64,000 bases of DNA from Labia minor. Taxonomy: Eukaryota; Arthropoda; Insecta; Dermaptera; Spongiphoridae. Numbering within the stretch: the stretch's first letter is position 1; each line of letters starts with the position of its first letter. This document shows positions 16,674 to 57,767 of the stretch, piece by piece. The stretch is taken from contig OY720350.1 in assembly GCA_963082975.1 (NCBI GenBank), forward strand, positions 37,244,660 to 37,308,659. Reading direction: 5' to 3'. The position numbers were made by a program, and so were the translations under genes. The notes beneath the pieces are model-generated. The model did no database searches, was not told the DNA's origin, and worked only from the letters and a program-made list of their open reading frames with translations.

Positions 16674-17452
16674 GTAGAAAATAAATTTCAATATTAAAAT
16701 AAAAGTCTTAGAATAATTAATAATTAAATGAATATATAAAATATAACATTAATTTTATTTTGGATATATAATAGATGGTCGAAAAAGTCTTTTCGCATTT
16801 TGTCCATAGATGTCGTTGGAATCGTATATCTCCAGTGCTACCAATCACATTGTGTCATACCATATAGTGTTGGAAAGGTGAAATTTCAAGCTTTATATAA
16901 CATTAAAGAAAATTAAATTGGTGAAGCTGAACAAAAGTTACAGCTTTTCAAAATTGAGTGAAAATAATGAAGAAATTCGCTATATTTTGAAATTTTTGTA
17001 TAAAAAAGGGAAGAATGCCACGCAAGCCGCCAATGAAATTTGTGAAGTTCACGGAGACGATGCTATATCAGTTCGTGTAGCACAACAATGGTTCGCACGC
17101 TTTCGTTCTGGAAATTTCGATGTGAAAGATGCACCTCGTTCTGGCCGACTTATCGTTGAAAAAGTCGATGAAATTATGGAAAAGATTGACAAGGACCGTC
17201 ACATAAGCAGCCATGACATTGCCAAGGAACTAAACATTCATCATCAAACGGTTTTGAACCATTTAAAAAAGGCTGGCTACAAAAAGAAGCTTGATGTGTG
17301 GGTACCACATGATTAGAAATACGAAAAGACTTTTTCGACTACCCTATATATATATATATATTCTAAATAAAAAGTATAATACAATCTATGAATCAATACT
17401 AAAACATCTTTTTCTTCAAATATCTATAAGATACATCATAATATACCATATA

Positions 17453-22200: not shown

Positions 22201-25200
22201 TTATTTTCTAATACTCTGAATCTATTCTCATTCCTCAAAGTCATTGATCACGCCTCACATCTATACAATAATATCTGCAGTATATGTAATAATTTTATTG
22301 ATTTTAATTTTAATATTCATTGAATATTAATTTTAATCAAATAATGAGTAGCGGATGGACAGTCTCTATGACTCTGATAGAGCCACGACTTTTCCACACC
22401 TTCATTTGAGGAAGTTGTGTCCCAAACCCTAATCAAATCCTAAATTCCAGCAATTCAATATTAAAAATTGTTCATATATCCCTCTCACTCCGGCGTCAGA
22501 CTCTCGCGAAAAATCGGCTGGAGGTTTTCTTCGAATGAAGATGAACAGGACTCTTGAAGACTGTCCAAAGCAGACCTCGCAAATACTAGGAAGAAGAAGA
22601 AGACTAATGTTTAGTCTTAGCACTATTAATTGCTTCTTCTTATCATGTCCAATTAAGTTTCCCATGTTATATTGAGTGCCTTTAATCGCTAGCATAAACT
22701 TATAGTTAAGGTACAGTGGGGTAAGTGCGTAAACAATTGTATTATGTACCATTTCAGATAGATGTCACTTATTTAGAGTGCGTTTTCCGTCTAATATATC
22801 ACTATTTTCAAATCACCCGAATAAATAAACTCTTGTAACTTTATGACTTGCAATAACAAATCTTACTATAATAAATATAGTGTTTTTGGGTTTTGATTTT
22901 TGGTAATTAGATAATATATTGATTATATTTTTTATCTCTACATCTTTAAATTTATGAGTAAAAATACTCTTTTTAAATCACGCCTTATACATATCCTATC
23001 ATAGAGCAAGTGCATACTATCATTTGGGGCAAGGTCGCTGTAGTTTGTTTGTCTCCTATCGCACTGCATTTCTCAATAAAAACTAACTAGGAATACATTT
23101 TTCTGATTTCTATGGAAAGTATATTAGCACAATCTTCAGGAAATATAGAACCTTTTATCAAAAACTGTGCTAAATTTATTCCTCCAGAAACAGAAATTAG
23201 ACAATAAGTTCTATTAAAAGCAATGCGCATAAACCTTTAAACAAAAAAAGGAAAGTTGGATGTGGAGCAGAAGATGTAATGTTTAGGATTTTAAAAGAAA
23301 AGGTAAAATCTCAAAAAAACGAGTCAGTCTTGAAGAATCTAATGAAAGTTTATGCTGTATCTGTAAATGCGATTTCCAGATTCAAATAACGATTGAATCC
23401 AATGCATAATCTGTAAGAGGTGGGTGTGTGGTATATGCAATAAGGGATTAAGAAAAAACAATATGAATATGAAGAATGTGAAGACGATTAATATAAGTTT
23501 CAAATATAAATGATTTCTATTATTTACTTTAGGTTTTATATTAAAATTCTAATGATTATTTTTTCTAATTTTTCTAAATCACACAACTTTAAAACTAATC
23601 AACATATTTTAGTTCTGTAAAAGGCAGTATATAGTAAAAATGTGTGAAATTCTCCTCCTGTCCCGTAATTCATCATATAAAGATTCAATTTGCTCGTAAT
23701 ATGCGTCTACGCACTTGCCCCGTTTTCAGGGCAAGTGCGGACTACTTGCCTTTTGTTACATTTTGTTATATTAAACATATTTTTGAACATAATTGCATAT
23801 TTCTAAAAATATAAATTAGTTAGTAGTAACATAACAATTCAATAATACTAAAACAAGATTATTATTTGTAAAATAAATAAACTTTTTATTAGTTCAAAGT
23901 TAAACTTTGCAAAAACTGGACCGCACTTACCCCACTTCTTACATTTTTTTTGTTTAATTGAATTTTGTTCGATTACTAAACACTTCGCTTAATTACATAT
24001 CCCATTTTTAGATTTAAATAAAATTAATGATAACTTATCTTCTAATTGATTTATACATCTCGTCTTTTCTTTACACTGATACAATATCGAAAATATTAAA
24101 ATCAAATTATTATTTTAATTATATAAATGAATATCCAAAGACATTATAATTTTATAATAAAAATTTATTGAGTGGTTCACATTAATTTTTTTTTTTTTTA
24201 GATATTTTATTTAATATATTAATTTAAATAAAATTATTTAAATAAATTTTTATCTTTTAGATGGAAAAAGTATTGAAGTTAAATCTTATCTTCAAAATCA
24301 ATTACAATTATTTAAAATGTTTTCACTAAAGAATGCATTATTAATTAAATACCATTTAGGAAAAACTAAAATTAACTTCGAAGATAATGGGTAATTATAT
24401 ATATTATTAGTTCTTATTGCTTCTAGGGATCTAGGTTAATATACACATTAAGTTATTTTATTTTATTCACATGAAATATTTATACTTTAAATTTTTATCA
24501 ACTTGTTGAGGTTTAAACCTTCATCTCCATGTTTAGGTGTTAAGCATTTTACCATGATAAATGAAATTTATATCAATACAAAATATTGTATAATTAACAA
24601 TTAAAATAAATGAAAGAATAAAAGAAAAAATTGAAACTTTTATAAATAACTATTAGTTAATTTGTAATATTACTAATTGTGATGTTAATTTTGATTTAAT
24701 GCACTTAACCCATCTCATATGAGATCACCAGGTATAGTAATTTTTTTTGACGAAGTTTCAAACAATTACTAAAATTCATTTGTATGTTATGAATTTTTGC
24801 CATTACTGCGTTTTGATTTTATGATTTTATTTAAACATGCTACTTCTAAAAGTTATCAATTATATAGTCATTGAATTTTTAATAAAATTAATTGTGTTGT
24901 ATCTAACGTAGTGTAAAGTGTGGATTTTCGTTAACCACAGACAATATTGTAGCCCTGTCAGTATTTACAGGCCGTCCGGAGCGCTCGCAATCTTTTCCAC
25001 TCCTGAATCTGGCAAACCACTTTTTTTGTACCACGCGATCGGTAACTGCAGATTCCCCGTAGTCATTGCATATTTCTTTCGCTGCTTGGGTTGCGCTTTT
25101 CCTTTTTCGAAAATAATACAACATAATATGGCGAAAATGCTCATTTTGCTCTGCCATTTTTAGTAAAAGAGGAGGTCACAAACGAAGTAGTAAAATTAAA

Positions 25201-35436: not shown

Positions 35437-36100
35437 ATTTTTTATTAATATCATATCAAAAAAGAGAATTTATTAAAAATTAAAAATAAAAAAAGAAGCT
35501 TATTAATAAAAAAATATAAAAGAATACAATAATTTTGATTTAAAACAAATTTTCAAAAAATACTCAATATATAAAAGTCATAAATTTAAAACATCTCGTT
35601 TATATCATTTGTCTAAAAAATCATATTTTAATTTTATATAACCAAGAAATCATTTTTGCACTTAAATATAGTTGTAATCAATAATTGAAACAAAATCAAA
35701 AATAATATAATTTAACCATTTTAATTGACGTTTTGAAAATATTTTTGTATTCATAAAATATTAAAAATAATACATATATTCTGTTTTTTTAACCTTTTAC
35801 TTTCAAATAGAAAAGAAGAAATAAGAATAAATAAAAATTAAGTTAATATAAATATGATCTAAATATTTTATTAAATTAACTAAAATGGGAACTTTTAGAA
35901 TAAATTATTTAATTGAATTGATATTTGAATATTAGAATTTAAAATAAAAAGTGAAATATTATAATAATTCTTTGATTGGGAATCGCTATGATAATTCATT
36001 GTTTAAAATGCTTCCGCTAGGGCCAGTGAGCCGCGAGCTGCTCTTGAATGAACAAATTCTGAGCAATGTGCAGACAAAAACCTTTTTTTATATATATAGA
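35437..36100. other. AT-rich left flank of the provirus
   Basis: The last 70 bases (TTCTGAGCAATGTGCAGA and surroundings) also occur inside the Helitron at about 18273-18310, so the provirus landed in or beside a Helitron relic. No gene seen. Confidence 0.5.
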
Positions 36101-37116
36101 TGTAAGGGGCTGCGTACTTACTTGCACCAATACTAGAAAGAAGGAACGAGATCATGCCACCTATATACGACGAATGTGTCAATTGTTTATTAAAAACATC
36201 ATTTAATTTAATTCAAATATAATTTATTTAATTTAGTTACAATTATTAAATCAAATTTAAAACATTAATCTATTCAAACACAATCTATTTAATTTGTTCA
36301 TTTAATCAATTTTATATTAATCCAGTTAATTATAATTTATATTATTTAATTTAATTATTCAATCAATTTTACATTAATTCTTTTAATTATAACTTATTTA
36401 ATTCAACTTGTTTATTTAATTAATTTTATATTAATTCATTTAATTATAATTCATATTATTTACTTTATTTATTCAATCAATTTTACATTAACTTATTTAA
36501 TATATCTTATTCAAATTAATTCATTTATTTAATCAATTTCATACGAATTTATTCAAATGCATTTGATGTAATTAAATTTGCTTTACTCACACTCTCCTGG
36601 CCAGGAACACATATTCACTAAACAGATCAAGATTAACACACACATCTTATAATTATTGATAATTCATTCACTTATCCTCTCGTGTACATTATTCACTGCC
36701 TGCCACACTCTGCCCGGCTTTTTGGTTCATCTCACCTTGAGCCTCCCCTCCTTCCCCTTTCGCCATCTCCTTCTCTCATTGTCTCTCTCACTTGCACCCA
36801 CTAGTCATCTTTCTTTTCTTACGTAACGATCACCTTTGATCAGTGGACAACGATTACATTTTTTCCCAGGCTATATAATGCCAACTAATCTTTCTTCTTC
36901 TTATTCTAACACATTCTCATTATATGACATAATGTATATTATATAATCTATTCCAACATATTCTAAAGATAATATATTGGAATTTTCCCAGAGCTTATGG
37001 AATGCTAACTAATCTTTCTTCTTCTTATTCTAACACATTCTCATTATATGACATAATGTATATTATATAATCTATTCCAACATATTCTAAAGATAATATA
37101 TTTCCAATATATTACA
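36101..37116 (-). repeat. 3' LTR of the provirus
   Basis: Starts TGTAAGGGGCTGCG and ends CCAATATATTACA on the + strand. It matches the other LTR except for three visible changes (at the seventh base, near 36350 and near 36380). U3 in element sense begins at 37116. Confidence 0.95.
36883..37101. repeat. 124-bp direct duplication in U3
   Basis: The segment from AACTAATCTTTCTTCTTCTT at 36883 recurs at 37007, period 124, and the same pair is present in the other LTR. In element sense it is near the start of U3, where enhancer duplications are common in retroviruses. Confidence 0.8.
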
Positions 37117-37130
37117 CTCCCCCACCCTTT
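37117..37130 (-). promoter_or_regulatory. Polypurine tract
   Basis: In element sense AAAGGGTGGGGGAG abuts the TGTAATA start of the 3' LTR, as required for plus-strand priming. Confidence 0.85.
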
Positions 37131-37176
37131 AAAAAAGATTGTTTCGGGGTAAAGGTTTTTCCCGAAACAATCCTTT

Positions 37177-38973
37177 TCAACAGTTCGACCCCTCCTCTGT
37201 TTTGTCTATGTCCACATCACTTCCCAGTTGATTCTGCAGTTCCCCGGCCTTCCTCTTCCTCCGTGTACACTTCTTCCACCAAAGATACCCCACCAGTCCA
37301 CACAGACTCACTAAAACTGCTCCACCACCGGTCCCGCCAGCGATAAGATGTTGTTTCCTTTTGCTCTGTATCAACCTCGCCTCCTCCCGCAACCTGGATA
37401 ATGGAACACTCATCGAGGTCCTTCCCAACTCAGCTCTTATCGACTCCAAGCTTTTCAGTCCCTCCGCCATTATTGTGTTCTCCTTACGTGATGTCTCTGT
37501 TATTAGGGGTTCTTCTTTATGGCCGGTAAATATCACTGGAGTTGTTATCGTGACTCTCGATTGACCCGCGCTCCTAGACATCAACAGATGTTGATTTGTA
37601 TGTAGCTGACATCCTTCCGGAACGGTAACGATGCCTTGTTGATGTAGTTGGATATCATCGAATCTAGGTTTGCTATTGGTACGGCAACTTTGCCGGGCCA
37701 CTTGAGGTCGTGATATACTATAATACCAATGGGAACCAGAATATGATGGTTCCCAAAAATCAGTAACCGCCCCTAATAACACTTCCCATGAGCAGTAACT
37801 GTCTAGATGCTCCGCCTGTTTGAAGAAGAGGGCGCTGACACAACTGAGTTGGGATCGGGCTACGAGTGGAATAGGCTGTTGACACACCATCGGCTCCCGT
37901 CCCCGGCAGTTGTCCACATATCTATGTTCTAGCGTGGTATATTTTTGGTGGTCATGCGTTACTAGGATCCACGGGGAAATTTTCACTAGCTTGGTCCTCA
38001 CTCCCCCCCGAGCTGTAGGCACCACATGAACGAAATATATTGTTCCTGACTGGGATACTGTCTTCAACGGAAGTGAGATCACGAAACGGATAGCGTTCCT
38101 GACACTATACACTTTCACTAATGATGTGTCATAGTACTTATAAACAAATCGTAATTCTAGCGGGGTCAGCCATTCCTGTCCTTCGGGGAGTTTCTTATTT
38201 ATATCTATCATTAATTCTAATAACATTTTTGGGTTGATCAATCGCGCATCGAGGCGTCCCGCTGCCGCCGATTGAACAATCCCGAGGACATCCTCTAACC
38301 AGTTTCGAACTGACGTCACTGCTTGCCCCAGGCGTCGTGTCTTAGTCATTAATTCTAACGCTTCTTGAAAAAATTTTTCGGCTGCGTTTTGCCGTCCAAG
38401 TGTCCAATTAAAATTTTGGTCTATCAAAGTGGCTAATTCCAATAATGTTCTAGCATGTTGTTTAATCAAGTCGAAATTTTGATTAGTTTTATGGTCGAGT
38501 TGGTCTAATGCTGTGATTTGATCATCGAAGTAATGACTCATTTGTTCATTAACTTCATTTAAATTTTGTAATCTGGTATTCAATTCCACCAGATCTTCAT
38601 TATCTAAAGTTCCGAAAATGAATTTTAAAACGTGCCCCCCCGCGTCCACCAGACCACGTCGACTTCGCGCCGGGGGTAGCATTTCACTCAAATGTGAAAT
38701 AGTCCCCTCCGTCATCTCGAAACTGGTCTTAATATATGACATATCCTCCTTAAAATCTATTGTCTTCAAAGGTTCTCCTTCTAAGAGAGCGTATCGGTCA
38801 CCCTGTAATTTCTCCAGAGAATCCCTGATGACCGATACCTTCCCTTGAATCTGTTTCACGTCGACTTCCGTTATAATCCGCCACTCATCTCCCGTAATTA
38901 TCACATCGTCGACTGGTTTAAAATAGACTCCCAGTGGCATTATCTCCTCCCTCTCCCTCGCCTGCTTCCCCAT
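37177..38973 (-). CDS. env: Envelope fusion protein, errantivirus/baculovirus F-like
   Basis: Membrane fusion glycoprotein of 598 residues. A furin-type site RSRR lies at about residue 102-105, followed by a fusion-peptide-like GLVDAGGHVLKFIFGTLD, the hallmark of baculovirus F and insect errantivirus Env. Cleavage would give a small N-terminal and a large C-terminal subunit. A transmembrane segment (AGGTGGGAVLVSLCGLVGYL, about 545-565) is followed by a basic anchor (KKCTRRKRK) and a short cytoplasmic tail. The ATG at 38973 is not followed by a clear signal peptide. The frame is open upstream to a strong splice acceptor, so the signal peptide may come from a leader exon. The frame is intact, with no stops. 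Confidence 0.9.
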   Translation of the reverse strand: MGKQAREREEIMPLGVYFKPVDDVIITGDEWRIITEVDVKQIQGKVSVIRDSLEKLQGDRYALLEGEPLKTIDFKEDMSYIKTSFEMTEGTISHLSEMLPPARSRRGLVDAGGHVLKFIFGTLDNEDLVELNTRLQNLNEVNEQMSHYFDDQITALDQLDHKTNQNFDLIKQHARTLLELATLIDQNFNWTLGRQNAAEKFFQEALELMTKTRRLGQAVTSVRNWLEDVLGIVQSAAAGRLDARLINPKMLLELMIDINKKLPEGQEWLTPLELRFVYKYYDTSLVKVYSVRNAIRFVISLPLKTVSQSGTIYFVHVVPTARGGVRTKLVKISPWILVTHDHQKYTTLEHRYVDNCRGREPMVCQQPIPLVARSQLSCVSALFFKQAEHLDSYCSWEVLLGAVTDFWEPSYSGSHWYYSISRPQVARQSCRTNSKPRFDDIQLHQQGIVTVPEGCQLHTNQHLLMSRSAGQSRVTITTPVIFTGHKEEPLITETSRKENTIMAEGLKSLESIRAELGRTSMSVPLSRLREEARLIQSKRKQHLIAGGTGGGAVLVSLCGLVGYLWWKKCTRRKRKAGELQNQLGSDVDIDKTEEGSNC

Positions 38974-38990
38974 CGCATCGTTAGTTTGGC

Positions 38991-39015
38991 CTGTGAGAGA
39001 AGAAACAAAGAAACA
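38991..39015 (-). promoter_or_regulatory. env: Splice acceptor for env subgenomic mRNA
   Basis: In element sense, TTTCTTTGTTTCTTCTCTCACAG, a long pyrimidine tract ending in CAG (AG at 38992-38991), lies between the pol stop and the env ATG. Gypsy-type elements express env from a spliced RNA. The donor was not identified. Confidence 0.7.
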
Positions 39016-42000
39016 TTACTCCTTTTTTTTATGGAAATTCCAAATGGTTCTCTTTTTAGGACGCCCTACCCCTCTCTTACTTGGTGGGACTCCAACGGGT
39101 GGTTTACGCGTATTAGGGTTCTTTGTCGCCCCGGCTGTTGTGGGAGGGCTTGTCCCCGGGCTACTGGTACTGGGTTGGGCCTCCACGCCACCCCGAACCG
39201 GGACATCTCTATTGGGTGATGTGTGAGGAGGGTGTGCATTCTGGTCCCTAGTGTTGGGTGATTTCTCCGGGCTAGCCGGGGAATCTATATCCTCCCACCC
39301 CTCCTCCCTTTGACTTTCTTCATCCTGCGAAACTTGTCCTGTTTCCCCTTGAGTATCGTGCTCACCGGTCTCTGTCTCCTGTCGCCCAGACTCTGGATCT
39401 CTTCTGTCAATCCTGAGGGATTCCTCTTCCCTTAGTGCTTCTGCTATGTCTATCTCATCTTGGCTTTCTAAATTAATTACAGGGGGTGTTTCCTTCTCCC
39501 CTTCTGGCTCGATCTCCTCTATCTCGCTGGGTCTTGCGGAATAATCTAGTTGTCCTACTCCATTCCAATTGGGCTGGGAGTCATTCCGTTCTTGCCACGG
39601 ACTCAATGAAATGTCCTCTTCCCCTGACCATACATCATCATCCGAATCGCTCTCCCAAATCCGGTTTTTCTCCTCTTCCTCATCAGTTGGCGTTGGGGTT
39701 CCAATGGCCGCTGGTGTGTATACGTGTACTCTCACCGGGTAGTCGGGGGTTAGCTCTTTTAGCCACTTCTTGACTTGTACCCATTTGAGGCCGTCCATTC
39801 CGCATCCTAAGCGCGGAACTGCCAATGCTGGGATTCCTACCTCGGTCGCTTTCAGTAGAAGGTTCTTGATTATCATTTTCACGTTTTCAGGGCGCGGCTT
39901 GTCACTCGCTTTTGTTTTGGTGACACAGTGAAGTATTACTCTATCTGGGTGGTATTGCACTAGGATCTCTCCGATGGTTGGTTCTGGGATCTTTTCGCAA
40001 GGGTGCCTCGGATAGGTGTCTCGTATAGTTTTTGCAACACCTTGGGACATGCGTAAGTCGGCCGATACGCAATGAGCTAGGGCGTAATTTTTGGGTGCCA
40101 TCAACATATCTCCCGTGTGTTCATATACACGGTTCACTCCGCGGCGTTCTATATTGGCTGGTTTCAAACGATTCACATGTATGTTGACAATCTTAGTGGG
40201 GCTCCACCACACTCCATATACCACTTCGGAATTTTTTGTCGCTATTGTGTAGGGGCCCTTCCAAGGCTTATAAAATTTCCGAGCTTCTGACTTTTTCAGA
40301 ACGGGGTTGTATACATATACTTCATCCCCTACTTCGAACCTTCGGAATTTTCGATGTTTATTAGCCTGTTTCCTGCTCGCCTGTAACCTGGCTTCCGACT
40401 GATTTATCGACCGTTGTTGTAGATGTTCTATCCGGTCACACAAGTCGTTTAGATATGCCCATCTATCTGGCTCTTCTTGATGATGTTGATTTTTTACGGT
40501 GATATTAATGTCTGTTTCCCGGCCGAATGCTAGCACATTCGGCGAAAACCCAGTGCTGGAATGGGGTCCGCTCCGATAAGCCATTAACGCGTATGGCAAC
40601 CAAACATCCCAGTCTTTACCGTCTGTTCTCACCCACGGTCGAAGCATCTCATTTATTGTTTTGTGTACCCTTTCCACTCGTCCATTCGATTCCGGATGAT
40701 AGGCTGTTGTTTGTACCTTTTTTATTCCTAAACGTTGACATAGTCCCAGGAATAGTTTAGAGGTGAAATTTCTTCCCTGATCGGTTAAGATGATTTCTGG
40801 GATCCCATGCCGGCTTATTACTTCTTCCGTGAGCGCACGGATCACTCTGGCCGCTGTTTGGTTCGGCATGGGTATCGCTTCCAAGTACCGGGAGTAGTGA
40901 TCTAGTACCGTCAAAAGGTATCTATTACCTCGGGTGGACTTCGGGAATTCCACGACATCTAGTGCTATCATTTGGAAGGGCCTTCTGGGGATCTCATGTG
41001 GTTGAACGGGAGCTCGAAGTCCAGTTGGCGTCTTCATCTGGGTACATATACTACACTGTTTCACCCAGGACTCTACGTCCCGTTCCATTCCCTCCCAAAA
41101 ATATTGTCGCTGGATTCGTGATAAGGTTCCCTGTACCCCTCTATGCCCCGCCGTGGGTCTATCATGATTCTCTTCCAATATCATGGGCACCTTTTCTCGG
41201 GGTACCATTAGACGGGTTTGGTGATCATCTACTACGTACAAACACCCATCGGATCTTGCTTGGGCTTTGCCGCTCCGTGCCCACCGCTGACAGTCCTCAT
41301 CTTGATCTTGTGATTCGCGCCATTCCTTTTCGGTCGCTGTGGTTCTCAATAAAGTTCGAATCGTATGCACCTTCGACTCAGGGCCTTCCTCACTAACTTT
41401 CACCCTACTGAGAGCATCCGCATTCCGATGTAACTTCCCCGGTCGATGTTCTACTGTATAGTCATATTCCGCCAGTCGTAGCGCCCATCGTGTCAACCGC
41501 TGTGACGGATCATGCAGACTTAACATCCATTTCAAGGCCGCGTGGTCAGTTATCAGTTGGAATTTCCTCCCATATAGGTAACACCGAAATTGTTGCGTCG
41601 CCCACACTACAGCAAGTAGTTCTTTCTCCGTTACTGTGTAGTTACTTTCGGCCTTGTTCAAAGTTCGACTAGCATAAGCAATCGGCCTTTCATATCCGTC
41701 TCGACGCTGTGATAACACTGCGCCTAAAGCCTCGTTCGAGGCGTCTGTGGCCAAGATAAACGGCAGTGTGAAATCTGGATAAACGAGTACGGTTTCACTA
41801 CACAGGAATTTTGTGAGAGAAAGAAACGCTTGTTCCTGGTCCTTCCCCCATTGGAACTTCTGGTCTTTCTTCGTGAGGACCGTCAATGGCTTCGCAATAT
41901 TAGCATACTCAGGGATAAACCTCCTGTACCACCCTGAGAGTCCCAGAAACTGTTGTATCACTTTCACGTTTTTCGGTTGTGGGTAGTTATTAATCGCTTC

Positions 42001-43968
42001 CACTGTTTTTGGATCGGGTCGGACTCCATCTTTCCCCACCCGATGCCCCAGGTACCCAACTTCTCCCACCGCGAAATGACATTTCTCTAGTTGTATTTGC
42101 AGTCTTGCCTGTCGGAGGCATTCGAATACGTTTCGCAACCTTCTTTGATGTTCTGAAAATGTTGTACCAAATACTACCACATCATCTAGATATACGAAAC
42201 ATTCGCTTCCTTTAATTCCAGCCAACACCCGATCCATCAAGCGTTGGAAAGTAGCTGGAGCCCCGGCTAAACCGAACGGCATTCTTGCGTACTCAAAATG
42301 CCCCATAAAAGTAGTGAATGCGGTTTTCTCTCTATCTTCTGGAGCTACCTGAATTTGGTGGTACCCACTTGCCAGGTCTAGGGTAGTGAAATATTGTGCA
42401 TTTCCTAAGGATTCTAGCGTCTCCGTGATATTAGGTATCGGATACACCGGAATCTTCGTTACACTGTTCAGAGCTCGGTAGTCAGTACAAAATCGATATT
42501 TAACCCTCCCGTCTGTACTCTTTTTGGGTACTAGTACTACGGGTGCTGACCATGGCGAATCTGATTCTACAATCACTCCTTCTTCTAGCATCTTCCCGAT
42601 CTGTTTTTCTACTTCGGGTCTCATCGCATGCGGCACTCTATAGGGTCGTTTAAAGATGGGAGCAGATCCTTCAGTGACAATTTTATGCTTCACACCTAGT
42701 GCACAACCCAATCCCGTTGTTCCCTCTTCATACATCAATGAAGCATATTCGTTCAATAGCTCGAACATCTGATGTTGGTGATTTTTAGGCAGGTGGGTCA
42801 ACTTTTCCTTGAACTTAGATACCCATTGATGTTTGGTCTCTTGTTCAACCACCTGCACTCGGCAAATACAACTTTGGTCTAATATTGGTATCGTGCTGGC
42901 TTTGGCAAGTTGTTGGCGACGATCTATCACTGCCTCCCTACTGGATAAGTTTATTACTCTGACCGGTACACTTCCTTTCTCGACTCTCACACAAGTCCGC
43001 CCTACCCGTAACACTGGTTGCGCCAATATAACCGGTTCCACTACCATTTCTGAGCCATCTTTTGCATTATCTACCTCAGCCCAGACCACTACCTCGGACC
43101 ACGCCGGAATTACTTTCCTCTGTTTTGCTCTCACGACCTCCTCTGGTAATCCTTCTATCCCGGTGACAGGCGGAATGCCACTAATGGCTTCAAATTCCGT
43201 GTCCTCTTTCCCAGTGCTAATTACCCTTGCTCTCACGACCTCCTCTGGCCCTCCTTCTATCCCGGTGACAGGCGGAATGCCACTAATGGCTTCAAATTCC
43301 GTGTCATCTTTTCCAGTGCCAATTACTCGTGCTCTCACGACCTCCTCTTGCACTTCTTCTATCCCGGTGACAGGCGGAATGCCACTAATGGCTCCAAATT
43401 CCGTGTCATCAGTTTCAGTGCTAACTACTCCTCTAGGTCGTTCCAGGGGAATAATCTCCAAATTACTCCCATCCCCAACACCCCTTTTCCCCTTCCCGTT
43501 ACCTCGTGCTGTGCCGTTCCAACGGCACTCCCTTTTCTGCACATCAATCACCGCTCCCATTCCCAGGAGCCCATCTCCCGCTATTCGTACATCGCAAATA
43601 ATGAATGGATGCATGATTCTTCTCTTCGTCACCAGTATCGGAAGCGTTTGTTGACCACTAATGGGCAACAGATCTCCCGTAACTCCACACGCGTTTCGCG
43701 GATATCCCATTACAGGGATATCTGGAATAGGAGCTTTTAAGATCGACACTTCCGACCCCGTGTCCACTAGCATCTCCAATTCCCGTCCCCCTATACTCAG
43801 TCTCACTCTAGTAGCCTTATCCGCATTGGTGTTGATTGCGGTTACCAGGAGAGATCCGAATCTCTTCGGACTCACTCTTGGGGCGGAGGGAGTCCGAACT
43901 CTTTTGGGGCCACTTGCGTATGGATGTTTTCTTCGGCCACACACTTTACCTGGGGAGGTCGGGGACAC
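39016..43968 (-). CDS. pol: Pol polyprotein: PR-RT-RNaseH-INT plus macro domain and AT-hook tail
   Basis: Replication enzymes, 1650 codons, numbered here from the first open codon at 43968. Protease DTGS at about residue 69. A spacer with three 34-residue repeats follows at about 180-281. The reverse transcriptase has YLDD at about 592, and an RNase H with ATDAS and TVTEKELLAVVWA follows. The integrase has an HHCC zinc finger (about 934-975) and a DDE core, including LTDQGRNFTS near 1061 and ESNGRVER. A C-terminal SH3-like segment (VGDEVYVYNP) comes next. After integrase lies a macro domain of TARG1/OARD1 type (about 1288-1420), then an acidic, Pro/Ser-rich tail of some 200 residues. The tail ends in a basic AT-hook-like VGRPKKR near 1635. 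All catalytic signatures that I can check are intact. It is probably translated only after -1 frameshifting from gag. Confidence 0.95.
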   Translation of the reverse strand: MSPTSPGKVCGRRKHPYASGPKRVRTPSAPRVSPKRFGSLLVTAINTNADKATRVRLSIGGRELEMLVDTGSEVSILKAPIPDIPVMGYPRNACGVTGDLLPISGQQTLPILVTKRRIMHPFIICDVRIAGDGLLGMGAVIDVQKRECRWNGTARGNGKGKRGVGDGSNLEIIPLERPRGVVSTETDDTEFGAISGIPPVTGIEEVQEEVVRARVIGTGKDDTEFEAISGIPPVTGIEGGPEEVVRARVISTGKEDTEFEAISGIPPVTGIEGLPEEVVRAKQRKVIPAWSEVVVWAEVDNAKDGSEMVVEPVILAQPVLRVGRTCVRVEKGSVPVRVINLSSREAVIDRRQQLAKASTIPILDQSCICRVQVVEQETKHQWVSKFKEKLTHLPKNHQHQMFELLNEYASLMYEEGTTGLGCALGVKHKIVTEGSAPIFKRPYRVPHAMRPEVEKQIGKMLEEGVIVESDSPWSAPVVLVPKKSTDGRVKYRFCTDYRALNSVTKIPVYPIPNITETLESLGNAQYFTTLDLASGYHQIQVAPEDREKTAFTTFMGHFEYARMPFGLAGAPATFQRLMDRVLAGIKGSECFVYLDDVVVFGTTFSEHQRRLRNVFECLRQARLQIQLEKCHFAVGEVGYLGHRVGKDGVRPDPKTVEAINNYPQPKNVKVIQQFLGLSGWYRRFIPEYANIAKPLTVLTKKDQKFQWGKDQEQAFLSLTKFLCSETVLVYPDFTLPFILATDASNEALGAVLSQRRDGYERPIAYASRTLNKAESNYTVTEKELLAVVWATQQFRCYLYGRKFQLITDHAALKWMLSLHDPSQRLTRWALRLAEYDYTVEHRPGKLHRNADALSRVKVSEEGPESKVHTIRTLLRTTATEKEWRESQDQDEDCQRWARSGKAQARSDGCLYVVDDHQTRLMVPREKVPMILEENHDRPTAGHRGVQGTLSRIQRQYFWEGMERDVESWVKQCSICTQMKTPTGLRAPVQPHEIPRRPFQMIALDVVEFPKSTRGNRYLLTVLDHYSRYLEAIPMPNQTAARVIRALTEEVISRHGIPEIILTDQGRNFTSKLFLGLCQRLGIKKVQTTAYHPESNGRVERVHKTINEMLRPWVRTDGKDWDVWLPYALMAYRSGPHSSTGFSPNVLAFGRETDINITVKNQHHQEEPDRWAYLNDLCDRIEHLQQRSINQSEARLQASRKQANKHRKFRRFEVGDEVYVYNPVLKKSEARKFYKPWKGPYTIATKNSEVVYGVWWSPTKIVNIHVNRLKPANIERRGVNRVYEHTGDMLMAPKNYALAHCVSADLRMSQGVAKTIRDTYPRHPCEKIPEPTIGEILVQYHPDRVILHCVTKTKASDKPRPENVKMIIKNLLLKATEVGIPALAVPRLGCGMDGLKWVQVKKWLKELTPDYPVRVHVYTPAAIGTPTPTDEEEEKNRIWESDSDDDVWSGEEDISLSPWQERNDSQPNWNGVGQLDYSARPSEIEEIEPEGEKETPPVINLESQDEIDIAEALREEESLRIDRRDPESGRQETETGEHDTQGETGQVSQDEESQREEGWEDIDSPASPEKSPNTRDQNAHPPHTSPNRDVPVRGGVEAQPSTSSPGTSPPTTAGATKNPNTRKPPVGVPPSKRGVGRPKKRTIWNFHKKKE
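39710..40110 (-). other. TARG1/OARD1-like macro domain inside Pol
   Basis: Residues about 1288-1420 of Pol. The order LAHCVSADLRMSQGVA (ADP-ribose phosphate loop region), CVTKTKASDKP, then AVPRLGCGMDGLKW follows human OARD1/TARG1 step by step. The catalytic lysine (human Lys84) corresponds to the Lys at about residue 1351 (codon 39916-39918) and the catalytic aspartate (human Asp125) to the Asp at about 1392 (codon 39793-39795). Family members bind ADP-ribose and remove it from glutamate or from DNA bases. A role for the element, such as reversing host ADP-ribosylation or guiding integration to marked chromatin, is inference. Confidence 0.9.
43127..43432 (-). repeat. Three in-frame 102-bp repeats in pol
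   Basis: The word GCTCTCACGACCTCCTC starts at 43127, 43229 and 43331, a period of 102 bases or 34 residues. Each unit encodes a variant of DTEFEAISGIPPVTGIE followed by EEVVRA. It sits between protease and reverse transcriptase. Confidence 0.9.
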
Positions 43969-44795
43969 TGCCTTATAAAGTGCTCCCTACTCCCGCACCT
44001 ATAGCATCCTTCACGAGGTTTGATGTTCCCTCTTTTCTCTGTACCCCCAATGGTACTATTCGGTTCCCTCTTTATGGGGCACATCCGAGCCATGTGTCCC
44101 TCCCGATTACAATTGTAACACCTGCCCCTAATCGCAGGGTTACTCGTGAACCGTGTGTTGTCTCTACGTCTCCATGGGTAGGTAAAGCGGGTTTCCGGGA
44201 CATTCCTTCCCTCTTTTTCCCACCGTTGTGCAATTTGTAAGGCTCCTTCCTCGGTCGTGGGGGCTGCTACTCGGGCTTGTCTACCCGGTTCGCCTCTGAG
44301 CCCTTCTAGAAACCGAGCCAATAGGGTAATTCCTGTACCCGCCCAATCTATCCCGGCCATTGCATCTCGTAATCGATCTAGATAATCCGCTGCACTCTCT
44401 TGCGGAGTTTGACCCATAGTCAGGACCATTCTCATCCTTTGGGTGGCCGTGTCTTCCGGCTTGAACCTCGCTCTCAGTTGTTCCTTCACCCCTTCCCAAG
44501 TGATATCTCCTGGTAAATTTCTGACGACTCTCAACGCCGTTCCCTCCAGCTTCCATTCCAAGACCTCCCTCCTCTGGTCCTCGGGTATGTTACCCATTTT
44601 GGCCAATTGCTCGAATTTATTGAGAAATAGGTCAATCTGTCCTGTCCCCGTCCAGGGCGACATCCCCTCCACTATTCCCCAATTAGGGTCTCGATTGACG
44701 CGTACCTCCACGGGACCAGCCGCCCCAGTCAGATTTGATAACTGGGCCTGCAATTGTCCTAATTGTTGTTCCAAATTATGGATCTGTTCCTCCAT
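43872..44795 (-). CDS. gag: Gag polyprotein with two CCHC zinc knuckles
   Basis: Structural protein that packages the element RNA. The open frame extends back to 44873, but that codon is GTG. The first ATG is at 44795, giving 307 residues. Early residues form a heptad-like coiled coil (QIHNLEQQLGQLQAQL). The middle is a capsid-like retrotransposon Gag segment (WKLEGTALRVVRNLPGD ... RFLEGLRGEP). Two nucleocapsid knuckles of the CX2CX4HX4C type follow, CYNCNREGHMARMC at about residues 226-239 and CYRCGSREHFIRQC at about 263-276. The last 97 bases overlap pol in the -1 relation and contain a CCCAAAA heptamer in the gag reading phase. Two knuckles are unusual for errantivirus Gag as I know it and closer to vertebrate retroviral nucleocapsids. 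Confidence 0.9.
   Translation of the reverse strand: MEEQIHNLEQQLGQLQAQLSNLTGAAGPVEVRVNRDPNWGIVEGMSPWTGTGQIDLFLNKFEQLAKMGNIPEDQRREVLEWKLEGTALRVVRNLPGDITWEGVKEQLRARFKPEDTATQRMRMVLTMGQTPQESAADYLDRLRDAMAGIDWAGTGITLLARFLEGLRGEPGRQARVAAPTTEEGALQIAQRWEKEGRNVPETRFTYPWRRRDNTRFTSNPAIRGRCYNCNREGHMARMCPIKREPNSTIGGTEKRGNIKPREGCYRCGSREHFIRQCPRPPQVKCVAEENIHTQVAPKEFGLPPPQE
43902..43908 (-). promoter_or_regulatory. Candidate -1 ribosomal frameshift site CCCAAAA
   Basis: In element sense the heptamer C CCA AAA fits X XXY YYZ in the gag phase and lies about 30 bases before the gag stop. The pol frame is open here and has no ATG before its protease (its first 'start' at 43968 is GTG). That supports expression of Pol as a Gag-Pol fusion. 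I did not fold the downstream sequence for a pseudoknot. Confidence 0.65.
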
Positions 44796-45038
44796 GTTTC
44801 GTGGGGGTGCTTTCAACTTCGATGTTGAGCAAACACCAGGTCTAGGGTTTAATTTTATCGTACTCTCCCTCACTTAAATACTCCCAAATTTCCGTATCTC
44901 TGCTCTCAGAATTTTAGTTTATCTTTGGTTTGAAAGGAATTAAACTATTAACAAAATATTCCCATTTTAATTAAATTTTATCGATGCAATCCTCAAAATT
45001 TTGCTTAATTATTTTACTCTCTACCCCTAAACCCTCAA

Positions 45039-45055
45039 CCCCACACCTGACACCA
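45039..45055 (-). promoter_or_regulatory. Primer binding site, tRNA-Leu type
   Basis: Two bases inside the 5' LTR, element sense reads TGGTGTCAGGTGTGGGG, complementary to a tRNA 3' end CCACACCTGACACCA. Animal tRNA-Leu (CAG) ends CCCACTCCTGACA plus CCA, so a tRNA-Leu primer is the best fit. I compared this from memory. Confidence 0.75.
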
Positions 45056-45057
45056 GT

Positions 45058-46073
45058 TGTAAGAGGCTGCGTACTTACTTGCACCAATACTAGAAAGAAG
45101 GAACGAGATCATGCCACCTATATACGACGAATGTGTCAATTGTTTATTAAAAACATCATTTAATTTAATTCAAATATAATTTATTTAATTTAGTTACAAT
45201 TATTAAATCAAATTTAAAACATTAATCTATTCAAACACAATCTATTTAATTTGTTCATTTAATCAATTTTATATTAATCCAGTTAATTATAATTTATATT
45301 ATTTAATTTATTTATTCAATCAATTTTACATTAATTCTTTCAATTATAACTTATTTAATTCAACTTGTTTATTTAATTAATTTTATATTAATTCATTTAA
45401 TTATAATTCATATTATTTACTTTATTTATTCAATCAATTTTACATTAACTTATTTAATATATCTTATTCAAATTAATTCATTTATTTAATCAATTTCATA
45501 CGAATTTATTCAAATGCATTTGATGTAATTAAATTTGCTTTACTCACACTCTCCTGGCCAGGAACACATATTCACTAAACAGATCAAGATTAACACACAC
45601 ATCTTATAATTATTGATAATTCATTCACTTATCCTCTCGTGTACATTATTCACTGCCTGCCACACTCTGCCCGGCTTTTTGGTTCATCTCACCTTGAGCC
45701 TCCCCTCCTTCCCCTTTCGCCATCTCCTTCTCTCATTGTCTCTCTCACTTGCACCCACTAGTCATCTTTCTTTTCTTACGTAACGATCACCTTTGATCAG
45801 TGGACAACGATTACATTTTTTCCCAGGCTATATAATGCCAACTAATCTTTCTTCTTCTTATTCTAACACATTCTCATTATATGACATAATGTATATTATA
45901 TAATCTATTCCAACATATTCTAAAGATAATATATTGGAATTTTCCCAGAGCTTATGGAATGCTAACTAATCTTTCTTCTTCTTATTCTAACACATTCTCA
46001 TTATATGACATAATGTATATTATATAATCTATTCCAACATATTCTAAAGATAATATATTTCCAATATATTACA
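45058..46073 (-). repeat. 5' LTR of the provirus
   Basis: Starts TGTAAGAGGCTGCG and ends CCAATATATTACA on the + strand, followed by the TAGA target duplication. It drives transcription toward lower coordinates. The TATA-rich tracts around 45890-46060 lie in U3, but a specific TATA box cannot be singled out. Confidence 0.95.
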
Positions 46074-46127
46074 TAGATATATTATTTATGATGAGAATGA
46101 TCGGATTTAGGAAATTAAGAAGTTTAA

Positions 46128-57012: not shown

Positions 57013-57767
57013 CAGGGATGGGCAAACTTTTTTTAGGATGCGGTTTACTTCTAATTTTTTTTACAATAAGTCGGTCCACCAGATATTTATTAAAATAATA
57101 ATAATAAACAATGTGGTATAAATGTACATAGGTAACTAAAAAAAATAGAATAAGAAAGGAACTTAGGTATATATTTTCAAACAAAATTTAAAGATTATAA
57201 AAGTATAAAAATATCAAGTTCATAAGAAATATTCTGATTCGAATTATTATTTAAGATAAAGTCATGTGAAATTGTCCGCATTAGAAGATTTACACTGCAT
57301 ATCCTCTGCTAATTTAGTAAATCTTGGTGTATAATTACTAACTGCCAGTCTTGTACTGCATTCGAGGTGATTGTCTGTAAGACGGGAGAGATATTTTGAT
57401 TTATTTATATTCATCGTAGAAAATGCAGATTCACATAGGTAGGTAGAGCCAAAGAACGATGTTAAATTTAATGCGAGACCTTTTAAATTAGGATACTTAA
57501 CTTCGTCCATTAAATTCCAAAAAATATTTGTAGGATCTGAATTATGTGCTTTTAAAATTATGTCATTTTGAAGAAGAAGAACTTCATCTTCCTCAATAGT
57601 TATAGAAAACAATTCGTTTATATTTTTGGTTATTTCTTCCCCGAGTAATGGAATTTTTTATATGCTAAGGAGTAGTTTAAGTAAAAAAGGCAATGAGTAA
57701 AGGCGATCACTTTAAAATGACTCGGCGGTCCACCAGTCGATCGCGATCGACTTAATGCCCATCTCTG
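57013..57767 (-). mobile_element. Internally deleted hAT element
   Basis: The end CAGGGATGGGCAAAC pairs with the complement of the other end, CAGAGATGGGCATTAAG. Flanking 8-base sequences AGTTATGT and CCTTATGT agree at six positions. A C-terminal transposase fragment lies inside. Confidence 0.8.
57262..57612 (-). pseudogene. hAT transposase C-terminal dimerisation region
   Basis: An open frame of 116 codons contains FWNLMDEVKYPNLKGLALNL, then STYLCESAFSTMNINKSKY and a run matching the C-terminal hAT dimerisation domain of ZBED/SCAND3-like proteins. The BED finger and the catalytic core are missing. It is the remnant of a transposase and its integrity is accidental or recent. Confidence 0.8.

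What the first reader, a model, noticed from the sequence alone, without database searches (positions are those of the whole stretch)
39710..40110. TARG1/OARD1-type macro domain fused behind the integrase of a gypsy-type endogenous retrovirus
Seen: after the integrase C-terminal segment, Pol continues in frame into a module with LAHC, a CVTKTKASDKP segment and PRLGCGMDGLKW, collinear with human OARD1/TARG1 and keeping both catalytic residues (Lys at Pol about 1351, Asp at about 1392). Known: this family removes ADP-ribose from glutamate and from DNA bases, and macro domains are found in some RNA viruses as antagonists of host ADP-ribosylation. Inference: the element may counter PARP-type defence, process ADP-ribosylated DNA ends during integration, or guide integrase to ADP-ribosylated chromatin, as chromodomains do in chromoviruses. 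I do not know of a described errantivirus-like element with such a domain. The frame is intact in a young copy, which suggests selection.
Basis: partly seen in the sequence, partly recalled or inferred. Interest (0 to 1): 0.88.

Follow-up and report, generated by a model that had tools for sequence, protein, structure and literature searches.

The report
Retroelement integrase fused to ADP-ribose hydrolase
A recently inserted, virus-like jumping element carries, welded to the tail of the enzyme that inserts it into DNA, a relative of a cellular enzyme that strips ADP-ribose tags; the piece is old, shared by several element families and largely kept intact by selection, which suggests that the element edits a host tagging system.

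The parts
36101..37116 (-). 3' LTR, 1016 bp, TG...CA
   Evidence: 3 differences to the 5' LTR
45058..46073 (-). 5' LTR, 1016 bp
36097..36100 (.). target site duplication TAGA, left copy
46074..46077 (.). target site duplication TAGA, right copy
45038..45055 (-). primer binding site (TGGTGTCAGGTGTGGGG...), next to the 5' LTR; tRNA not identified
   Evidence: sequence; role by position
37117..37130 (-). polypurine tract next to the 3' LTR (AAAGGGTGGGGGAG)
   Evidence: sequence; role by position
43872..44873 (-). Gag: Retrotrans_gag and zinc knuckles
39016..43968 (-). Pol open frame, 1650 aa, overlaps the end of Gag in another frame
42037..42531 (-). reverse transcriptase (Pol 480-644)
   Evidence: Pfam RVT_1 E 4.7e-33
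40693..41205 (-). integrase zinc-binding and core domains (Pol 922-1092)
   Evidence: Pfam Integrase_H2C2 and rve
40159..40257 (-). end of the integrase C-terminal domain (Pol 1238-1270, Integrase_p58_C, 19.9 bits, below the Pfam cut-off of 27)
39709..40128 (-). TARG1/OARD1-type macro domain (Pol 1281-1420); catalytic Lys1351 at 39916-39918, Asp1392 at 39793-39795
39094..39708 (-). acidic, poorly conserved linker (Pol 1421-1625; 22% identity to P0001 against 46% for the macro domain)
39019..39093 (-). C-terminal motif RGVGRPKKRTIWNF shared with P0001 and P0003, AT-hook-like by eye only (Pfam finds none)
37177..38973 (-). Env, 598 aa, Baculovirus F-like
   Evidence: Pfam Baculo_F E 7.9e-28

Best explanation
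An ancestor of a lineage of env-bearing Ty3/gypsy elements captured a TARG1/OARD1-type mono-ADP-ribosyl hydrolase domain at the C-terminus of its integrase (supported by homology and phylogeny). The domain has since been inherited with Pol and kept under selection, with its catalytic Lys and Asp, in at least two families (shown by counts among copies). As part of integrase it would travel with the incoming cDNA into the nucleus and there remove ADP-ribose from proteins or DNA ends that host PARP-type enzymes mark, so blunting ADP-ribosylation-dependent repression or repair signalling at the new insertion (inferred).
For: Sequence and fold equal TARG1. Three families in one genome and two database proteins of undisclosed organisms (P0001, P0003) have the domain at the same place, directly after the integrase end, and their Pols form one clade, 100/98. 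N/S at the macro domain 0.235 in A (28 of 57 copies; p 3.6e-6) and 0.34 in B (23 of 32; p 0.003), like integrase. Catalytic Lys in 28 of 28, 24 of 24 and 22 of 22 copies of A, B and C, and Asp in 28 of 28, 23 of 23 readable (one partial copy does not reach it) and 22 of 22. The family is mobile: 4-bp duplications at 9 of 10 other copies looked at. NCBIfam's best family is the DNA ADP-ribosyl glycohydrolase DarG (E 1.1e-10, but 41 bits against a cut-off of 250), and DarG structures follow TARG1 in the fold list. In Drosophila parp-1 mutants 5 of 8 significantly misregulated mobile elements were up, 3 of the 8 being gypsy-superfamily (springer up 2505-fold), and 9 of 10 further elements that rose without passing the authors' thresholds were gypsy-superfamily (PMC7712786, passages). 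The viral fold library lists like domains high up in Kadipiro virus and in thrips-associated negev-, virga- and flavi-like RNA viruses.
Against: No activity, expression or localisation data. Family C, with loop GCGxD changed to DLVTD and weak selection (0.56, p 0.096), shows that full TARG1 function is not needed by every member; Pfam does not see the domain of P0003 at all, it shows only against the element profile (92 bits). Selection also fits a binding-only role. The authors of PMC7712786 say that the PARP-1 effect may be indirect. The host has its own OARD1-like gene (L016), so why the element needs one is not explained.
Confidence: 0.5

Rival explanations
1. Tether: the macro domain is a reader that docks integrase on ADP-ribosylated chromatin or damage sites, as chromodomains guide chromovirus integrases; catalysis is irrelevant.
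For: Position directly after the integrase C-terminal domain, where chromodomains sit in chromoviruses (recalled); a shared basic, AT-hook-like motif at or near the end of A, P0001, P0003, C and E; family C keeps the domain although a binding loop has changed.
Against: Catalytic Lys and Asp are invariant in the copies read, C included, though they may also line the pocket; the window's and 9 other duplications show no common motif; chromatin state was not testable.
Confidence: 0.25
2. DNA-end enzyme: it removes ADP-ribose that host PARPs put on the linear cDNA ends, so that strand transfer can proceed; a DarG-like use.
For: DarG is the best NCBIfam match, below its cut-off, and the next fold after TARG1; a review passage says that TARG1 was reported to remove ADP-ribose from single-stranded DNA (PMC7139919).
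Against: Related elements without the domain also persist; no evidence of ADP-ribosylated retroelement DNA.
Confidence: 0.12
3. Structural linker: the captured domain merely spaces or stabilises the integrase C-terminus; remnants of catalysis are inherited.
For: Family C: a loop lost, selection not significant.
Against: N/S 0.235 in A and invariant active-site residues.
Confidence: 0.1

Closest known systems
Human TARG1/OARD1 (C6orf130) mono-ADP-ribosyl hydrolase
   Different: Domain of an integrase, not a stand-alone protein; 30% identity to human and 28% to the host's own OARD1-like gene
Macro domain ORFs of fish endogenous retroviruses (Basta et al. 2009, cited in PMC4977317; one passage seen)
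   Same: Reverse-transcribing element with a macro domain
   Different: Described in that passage as additional open reading frames, not as an integrase fusion; vertebrate retroviruses; macro subtype not seen
Chromodomain integrases of chromoviruses (recalled)
   Same: Host domain behind the integrase C-terminus
   Different: A hydrolase fold instead of a histone-methyl reader
DarG antitoxin macro domain
   Different: Bacterial toxin-antitoxin partner; score 41 against a cut-off of 250
Gypsy-type Pols P0015 and P0020 with macro-like domains between RNase H and integrase
   Same: TARG1-like macro domain inside Pol
   Different: Other place in Pol, other Pol clade; the second P0015 copy and P0020 are degenerate

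Membership tests
TARG1/OARD1-type macro domain | macro fold with TARG1 as best structural match | tested here: met
TARG1/OARD1-type macro domain | catalytic Lys and Asp (K84 and D125 in human; numbering recalled) | tested here: met
TARG1/OARD1-type macro domain | hydrolysis of ADP-ribose from glutamate or DNA | not testable with these tools
   needs an assay
Ty3/gypsy LTR element | LTRs, PBS, PPT, RT-RNaseH-integrase order, short target duplication | tested here: met
Errantivirus (env-bearing insect gypsy clade) | env of Baculovirus F type | tested here: met
   Pfam Baculo_F
Errantivirus (env-bearing insect gypsy clade) | Pol inside the clade of named errantiviruses | tested here: inconclusive
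   no reference set of named errantiviruses in the tree; the one hit named after 297 is outside the element's group
Chromovirus | chromodomain behind integrase | tested here: not met
   Pfam at E 0.01 lists no chromodomain in Pol, a macro domain instead

The most novel reading that the evidence does not exclude
Retroelements have recruited TARG1-type ADP-ribose hydrolases repeatedly (behind integrase here, between RNase H and integrase in P0015/P0020, at the C-terminus of a springtail non-LTR protein), which would make ADP-ribosylation a general arthropod defence against mobile elements and this domain its first known retroelement-encoded antagonist.
Probability: 0.35. Interest if true: 0.92.

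Novelty: new variant of a known kind. Interest (0 to 1): 0.8.

Why it matters
Macro domains of some RNA viruses antagonise host ADP-ribosylation (recalled); an integrase-fused TARG1 domain, under selection and with its active-site residues kept in several retroelement families, would extend that contest to the genome's own retroviruses. It gives a direct handle on whether PARP-type marks restrict mobile elements: families with a complete domain (A), an altered one (C) and none (neighbouring Pols) can be compared.

Tried and rejected
Chance or contamination: rejected by 123 matches in the own genome. One-off capture: rejected by families B and C and by P0001 and P0003. Recent capture of the host's own gene: not favoured, 28% identity to the host's OARD1-like gene, although the macro tree backbone is unresolved. 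Single origin of all seven fused domains: the free tree splits them in two (A, P0001, B, D, E at 99/94; P0003 and C at 99/97) and is 24.2 log units better, but one clade is not rejected (p-AU 0.222), and the Pol tree favours one capture; two are not excluded. An earlier macro tree without B to E placed the window and P0001 beside stand-alone P0109; neither macro tree's bootstrap had settled. Dropped before the second macro tree: P0146-P0149, P0020 and the second P0015 domain. AT-hook: a GRPxK motif is visible, but Pfam found nothing in five tails of 35-40 aa. Target-site preference: 10 further copies read, 9 with a matching duplication, no motif; a first script with a longer 5' probe mis-hit inside the LTR. 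IMG/VR: 9 pattern stretches, none a relative. Viral fold library: no row named as a reverse-transcribing element among the 50 shown of 1137, many unnamed. Host species: not identified; the telomere-motif search did not complete. P0035/P0041 spacers as decayed macro domains: weak when tested alone (hhalign probability 17%), strong only when aligned with P0015/P0020 (98.9%). For changes seen in at least two copies, family B integrase gives 3 silent and 3 replacing, not significant. Not run: a search for family A copies lacking the domain, a genome-wide scan for macro domains, the plain Foldseek PDB search.

Full report
What is there. The window holds one complete-looking LTR element on the minus strand, 36101-46073. 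The LTRs are 1016 bp, differ at 3 positions (99.7%) and are flanked by the duplication TAGA; a primer binding site and a polypurine tract lie where expected. Gag (43872-44873), Pol (39016-43968, 1650 aa) and Env (37177-38973, 598 aa) are open. Pfam assigns gag and zinc-knuckle domains, RT, RNase H, integrase zinc and core domains, and a Baculovirus F-like Env.

Copies in the same genome. The only answered whole-genome search (604 Mb, 71 contigs; species not given) returned 123 matches, which I sorted by identity and reading frame: family A, 57 (56 over the whole query, 55 of these without a stop) plus 6 fragments; family B, 30 plus two relics; family C, 23; two relics of a fourth type D; one of a fifth type E; and two exons of an OARD1-like gene, read as the host's own (L016). 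The tool calls such counts lower bounds. Pieces of B and C show RT, RNase H and integrase followed by the macro domain in one frame. Of ten further A copies looked at, nine have a matching 4-bp duplication, so the family has moved with the domain in place.

Beyond this genome. A search with the integrase-macro region gave 88 proteins. A macro profile built from the window, P0001 and P0002, run over these 88 and the window's Pol, finds the domain in 6 of 89: after integrase in the window, P0001 and P0003, between RNase H and integrase in P0015 (two copies) and P0020, and at the C-terminus of a non-LTR protein of the springtail Allacma fusca (P0002). Pfam itself misses it in P0003, P0015 and P0020 at E 1 and scores P0002 just under its cut-off. 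In a Pol tree without macro columns (34 of the 89 Pols, chosen by rank, plus B and C), window, P0001, family B, P0003 and family C form one group (100/98), and the neighbouring group of eight, P0004-P0011, lacks the domain. P0015 and P0020 lie in another part of the tree. The macro tree keeps A, P0001, B, D and E together (99/94) and P0003 with C (99/97) but leaves the backbone open; one clade for all seven is not rejected (p-AU 0.222). I read this as one ancient capture behind integrase and probably separate recruitment elsewhere; two captures behind integrase are not excluded, and the origin of the P0015 and P0002 domains was not tested on its own.

Selection. Against P0001 the macro domain is 46% identical, the integrase C-terminal domain 48%, the following linker 22%. 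Among copies in the genome, distinct changes in the macro domain are 25 silent and 17 replacing in A (28 of 57 copies; N/S 0.235 of neutral, p 3.6e-6), 15 and 15 in B (23 of 32; 0.34, p 0.003), 11 and 19 in C (22 of 23; 0.56, p 0.096); integrase gives 0.245, 0.356 and 0.353. For A and B the macro result holds under five mutation models and for changes seen in at least two copies; for C it passes 0.05 in one model only. Changes since insertion push N/S towards 1, so the low values are conservative (inference). Lys is kept in 28 of 28, 24 of 24 and 22 of 22 copies, Asp in 28 of 28, 23 of 23 readable (one partial copy does not reach it) and 22 of 22. Family C and P0003 have altered loops (GCGxD to DLVTD and DCGRD) yet keep both residues: either altered specificity or early decay.

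How it may work. A TARG1-type hydrolase on integrase would be carried with the cDNA to the nucleus (inference). In Drosophila parp-1 mutants five of eight significantly misregulated mobile elements were up and three of the eight were of the gypsy superfamily; nine of ten further elements that rose, without passing the authors' thresholds, were gypsy-superfamily; the authors add that the effect could be indirect (PMC7712786, passages). TARG1 removes ADP-ribose from acidic residues and was reported to act on single-stranded DNA (PMC7139919, passages). The viral fold library lists like domains high up in Kadipiro virus and in thrips-associated negev-, flavi- and virga-like viruses at 25-29% identity, so viruses of unrelated kinds, several from insects, seem to carry the fold. 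Together this favours removal of host ADP-ribose marks at the incoming DNA. Binding-only tethering and DNA-end clean-up remain open; the structural-linker reading is unlikely for A and B.

What is known. Ten paper searches in an open-licence library gave, in the listings seen (one search showed 20 of 22,943, 10 of 14, 10 of 11), one relevant statement on retroviral macro domains: some fish ERVs have additional reading frames for macro domain proteins (PMC4977317, one passage, citing Basta et al. 2009, which I did not see). I saw no description of an integrase fusion, but subscription papers and repeat databases were not searched. I therefore file it as a new variant of a known kind: domain capture behind a gypsy-type integrase, with an enzyme fold that I did not find reported there.

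Noticed in passing
P0015 residues 719-866 and 956-1098; P0020 758-907 (database proteins): Macro-like domains between RNase H and integrase in another gypsy-type clade; the second P0015 copy and P0020 are degenerate (a four-row spacer profile P0015d2/P0020/P0035/P0041 matches macros with hhalign probability 98.9).
   Followed up: partly
P0002 residues 1760-1916: A springtail (Allacma fusca) endonuclease-RT protein of non-LTR type ends in a TARG1-like macro domain with both catalytic residues; could be an element or a joined gene model.
   Followed up: partly
39019-39093 minus: At or near the Pol ends of A, P0001, P0003, C and E lies a basic motif of the kind GRPxK..WNF or FNF (E: GRSRKRTYWNF), not seen in the printed ends of P0004-P0011 or family B.
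   Followed up: partly
L010, L018 (family C macro domain): Loop GCGxD replaced by DLVTD while Lys and Asp stay: possible change of ligand or slow decay.
   Followed up: partly
43125-43430: Three tandem 102-bp units in the protease-RT linker of Pol give a 34-aa repeat (DDTEFEAISGIPPVTGIE...).
   Followed up: no
L016 2529-3102 minus: Two exons of what looks like the host's own OARD1 gene, 50% identical to human OARD1 over the aligned part.
   Followed up: partly
16882-17313 plus; 24906-25175 minus; 57265-57657 minus: Remnants of mariner-type (HTH_48) and hAT (Dimer_Tnp_hAT) transposases.
   Followed up: no
39871-39873 minus (residue 86 of the domain): The window copy has Ile where the 27 other A copies read have Thr.
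   Followed up: no
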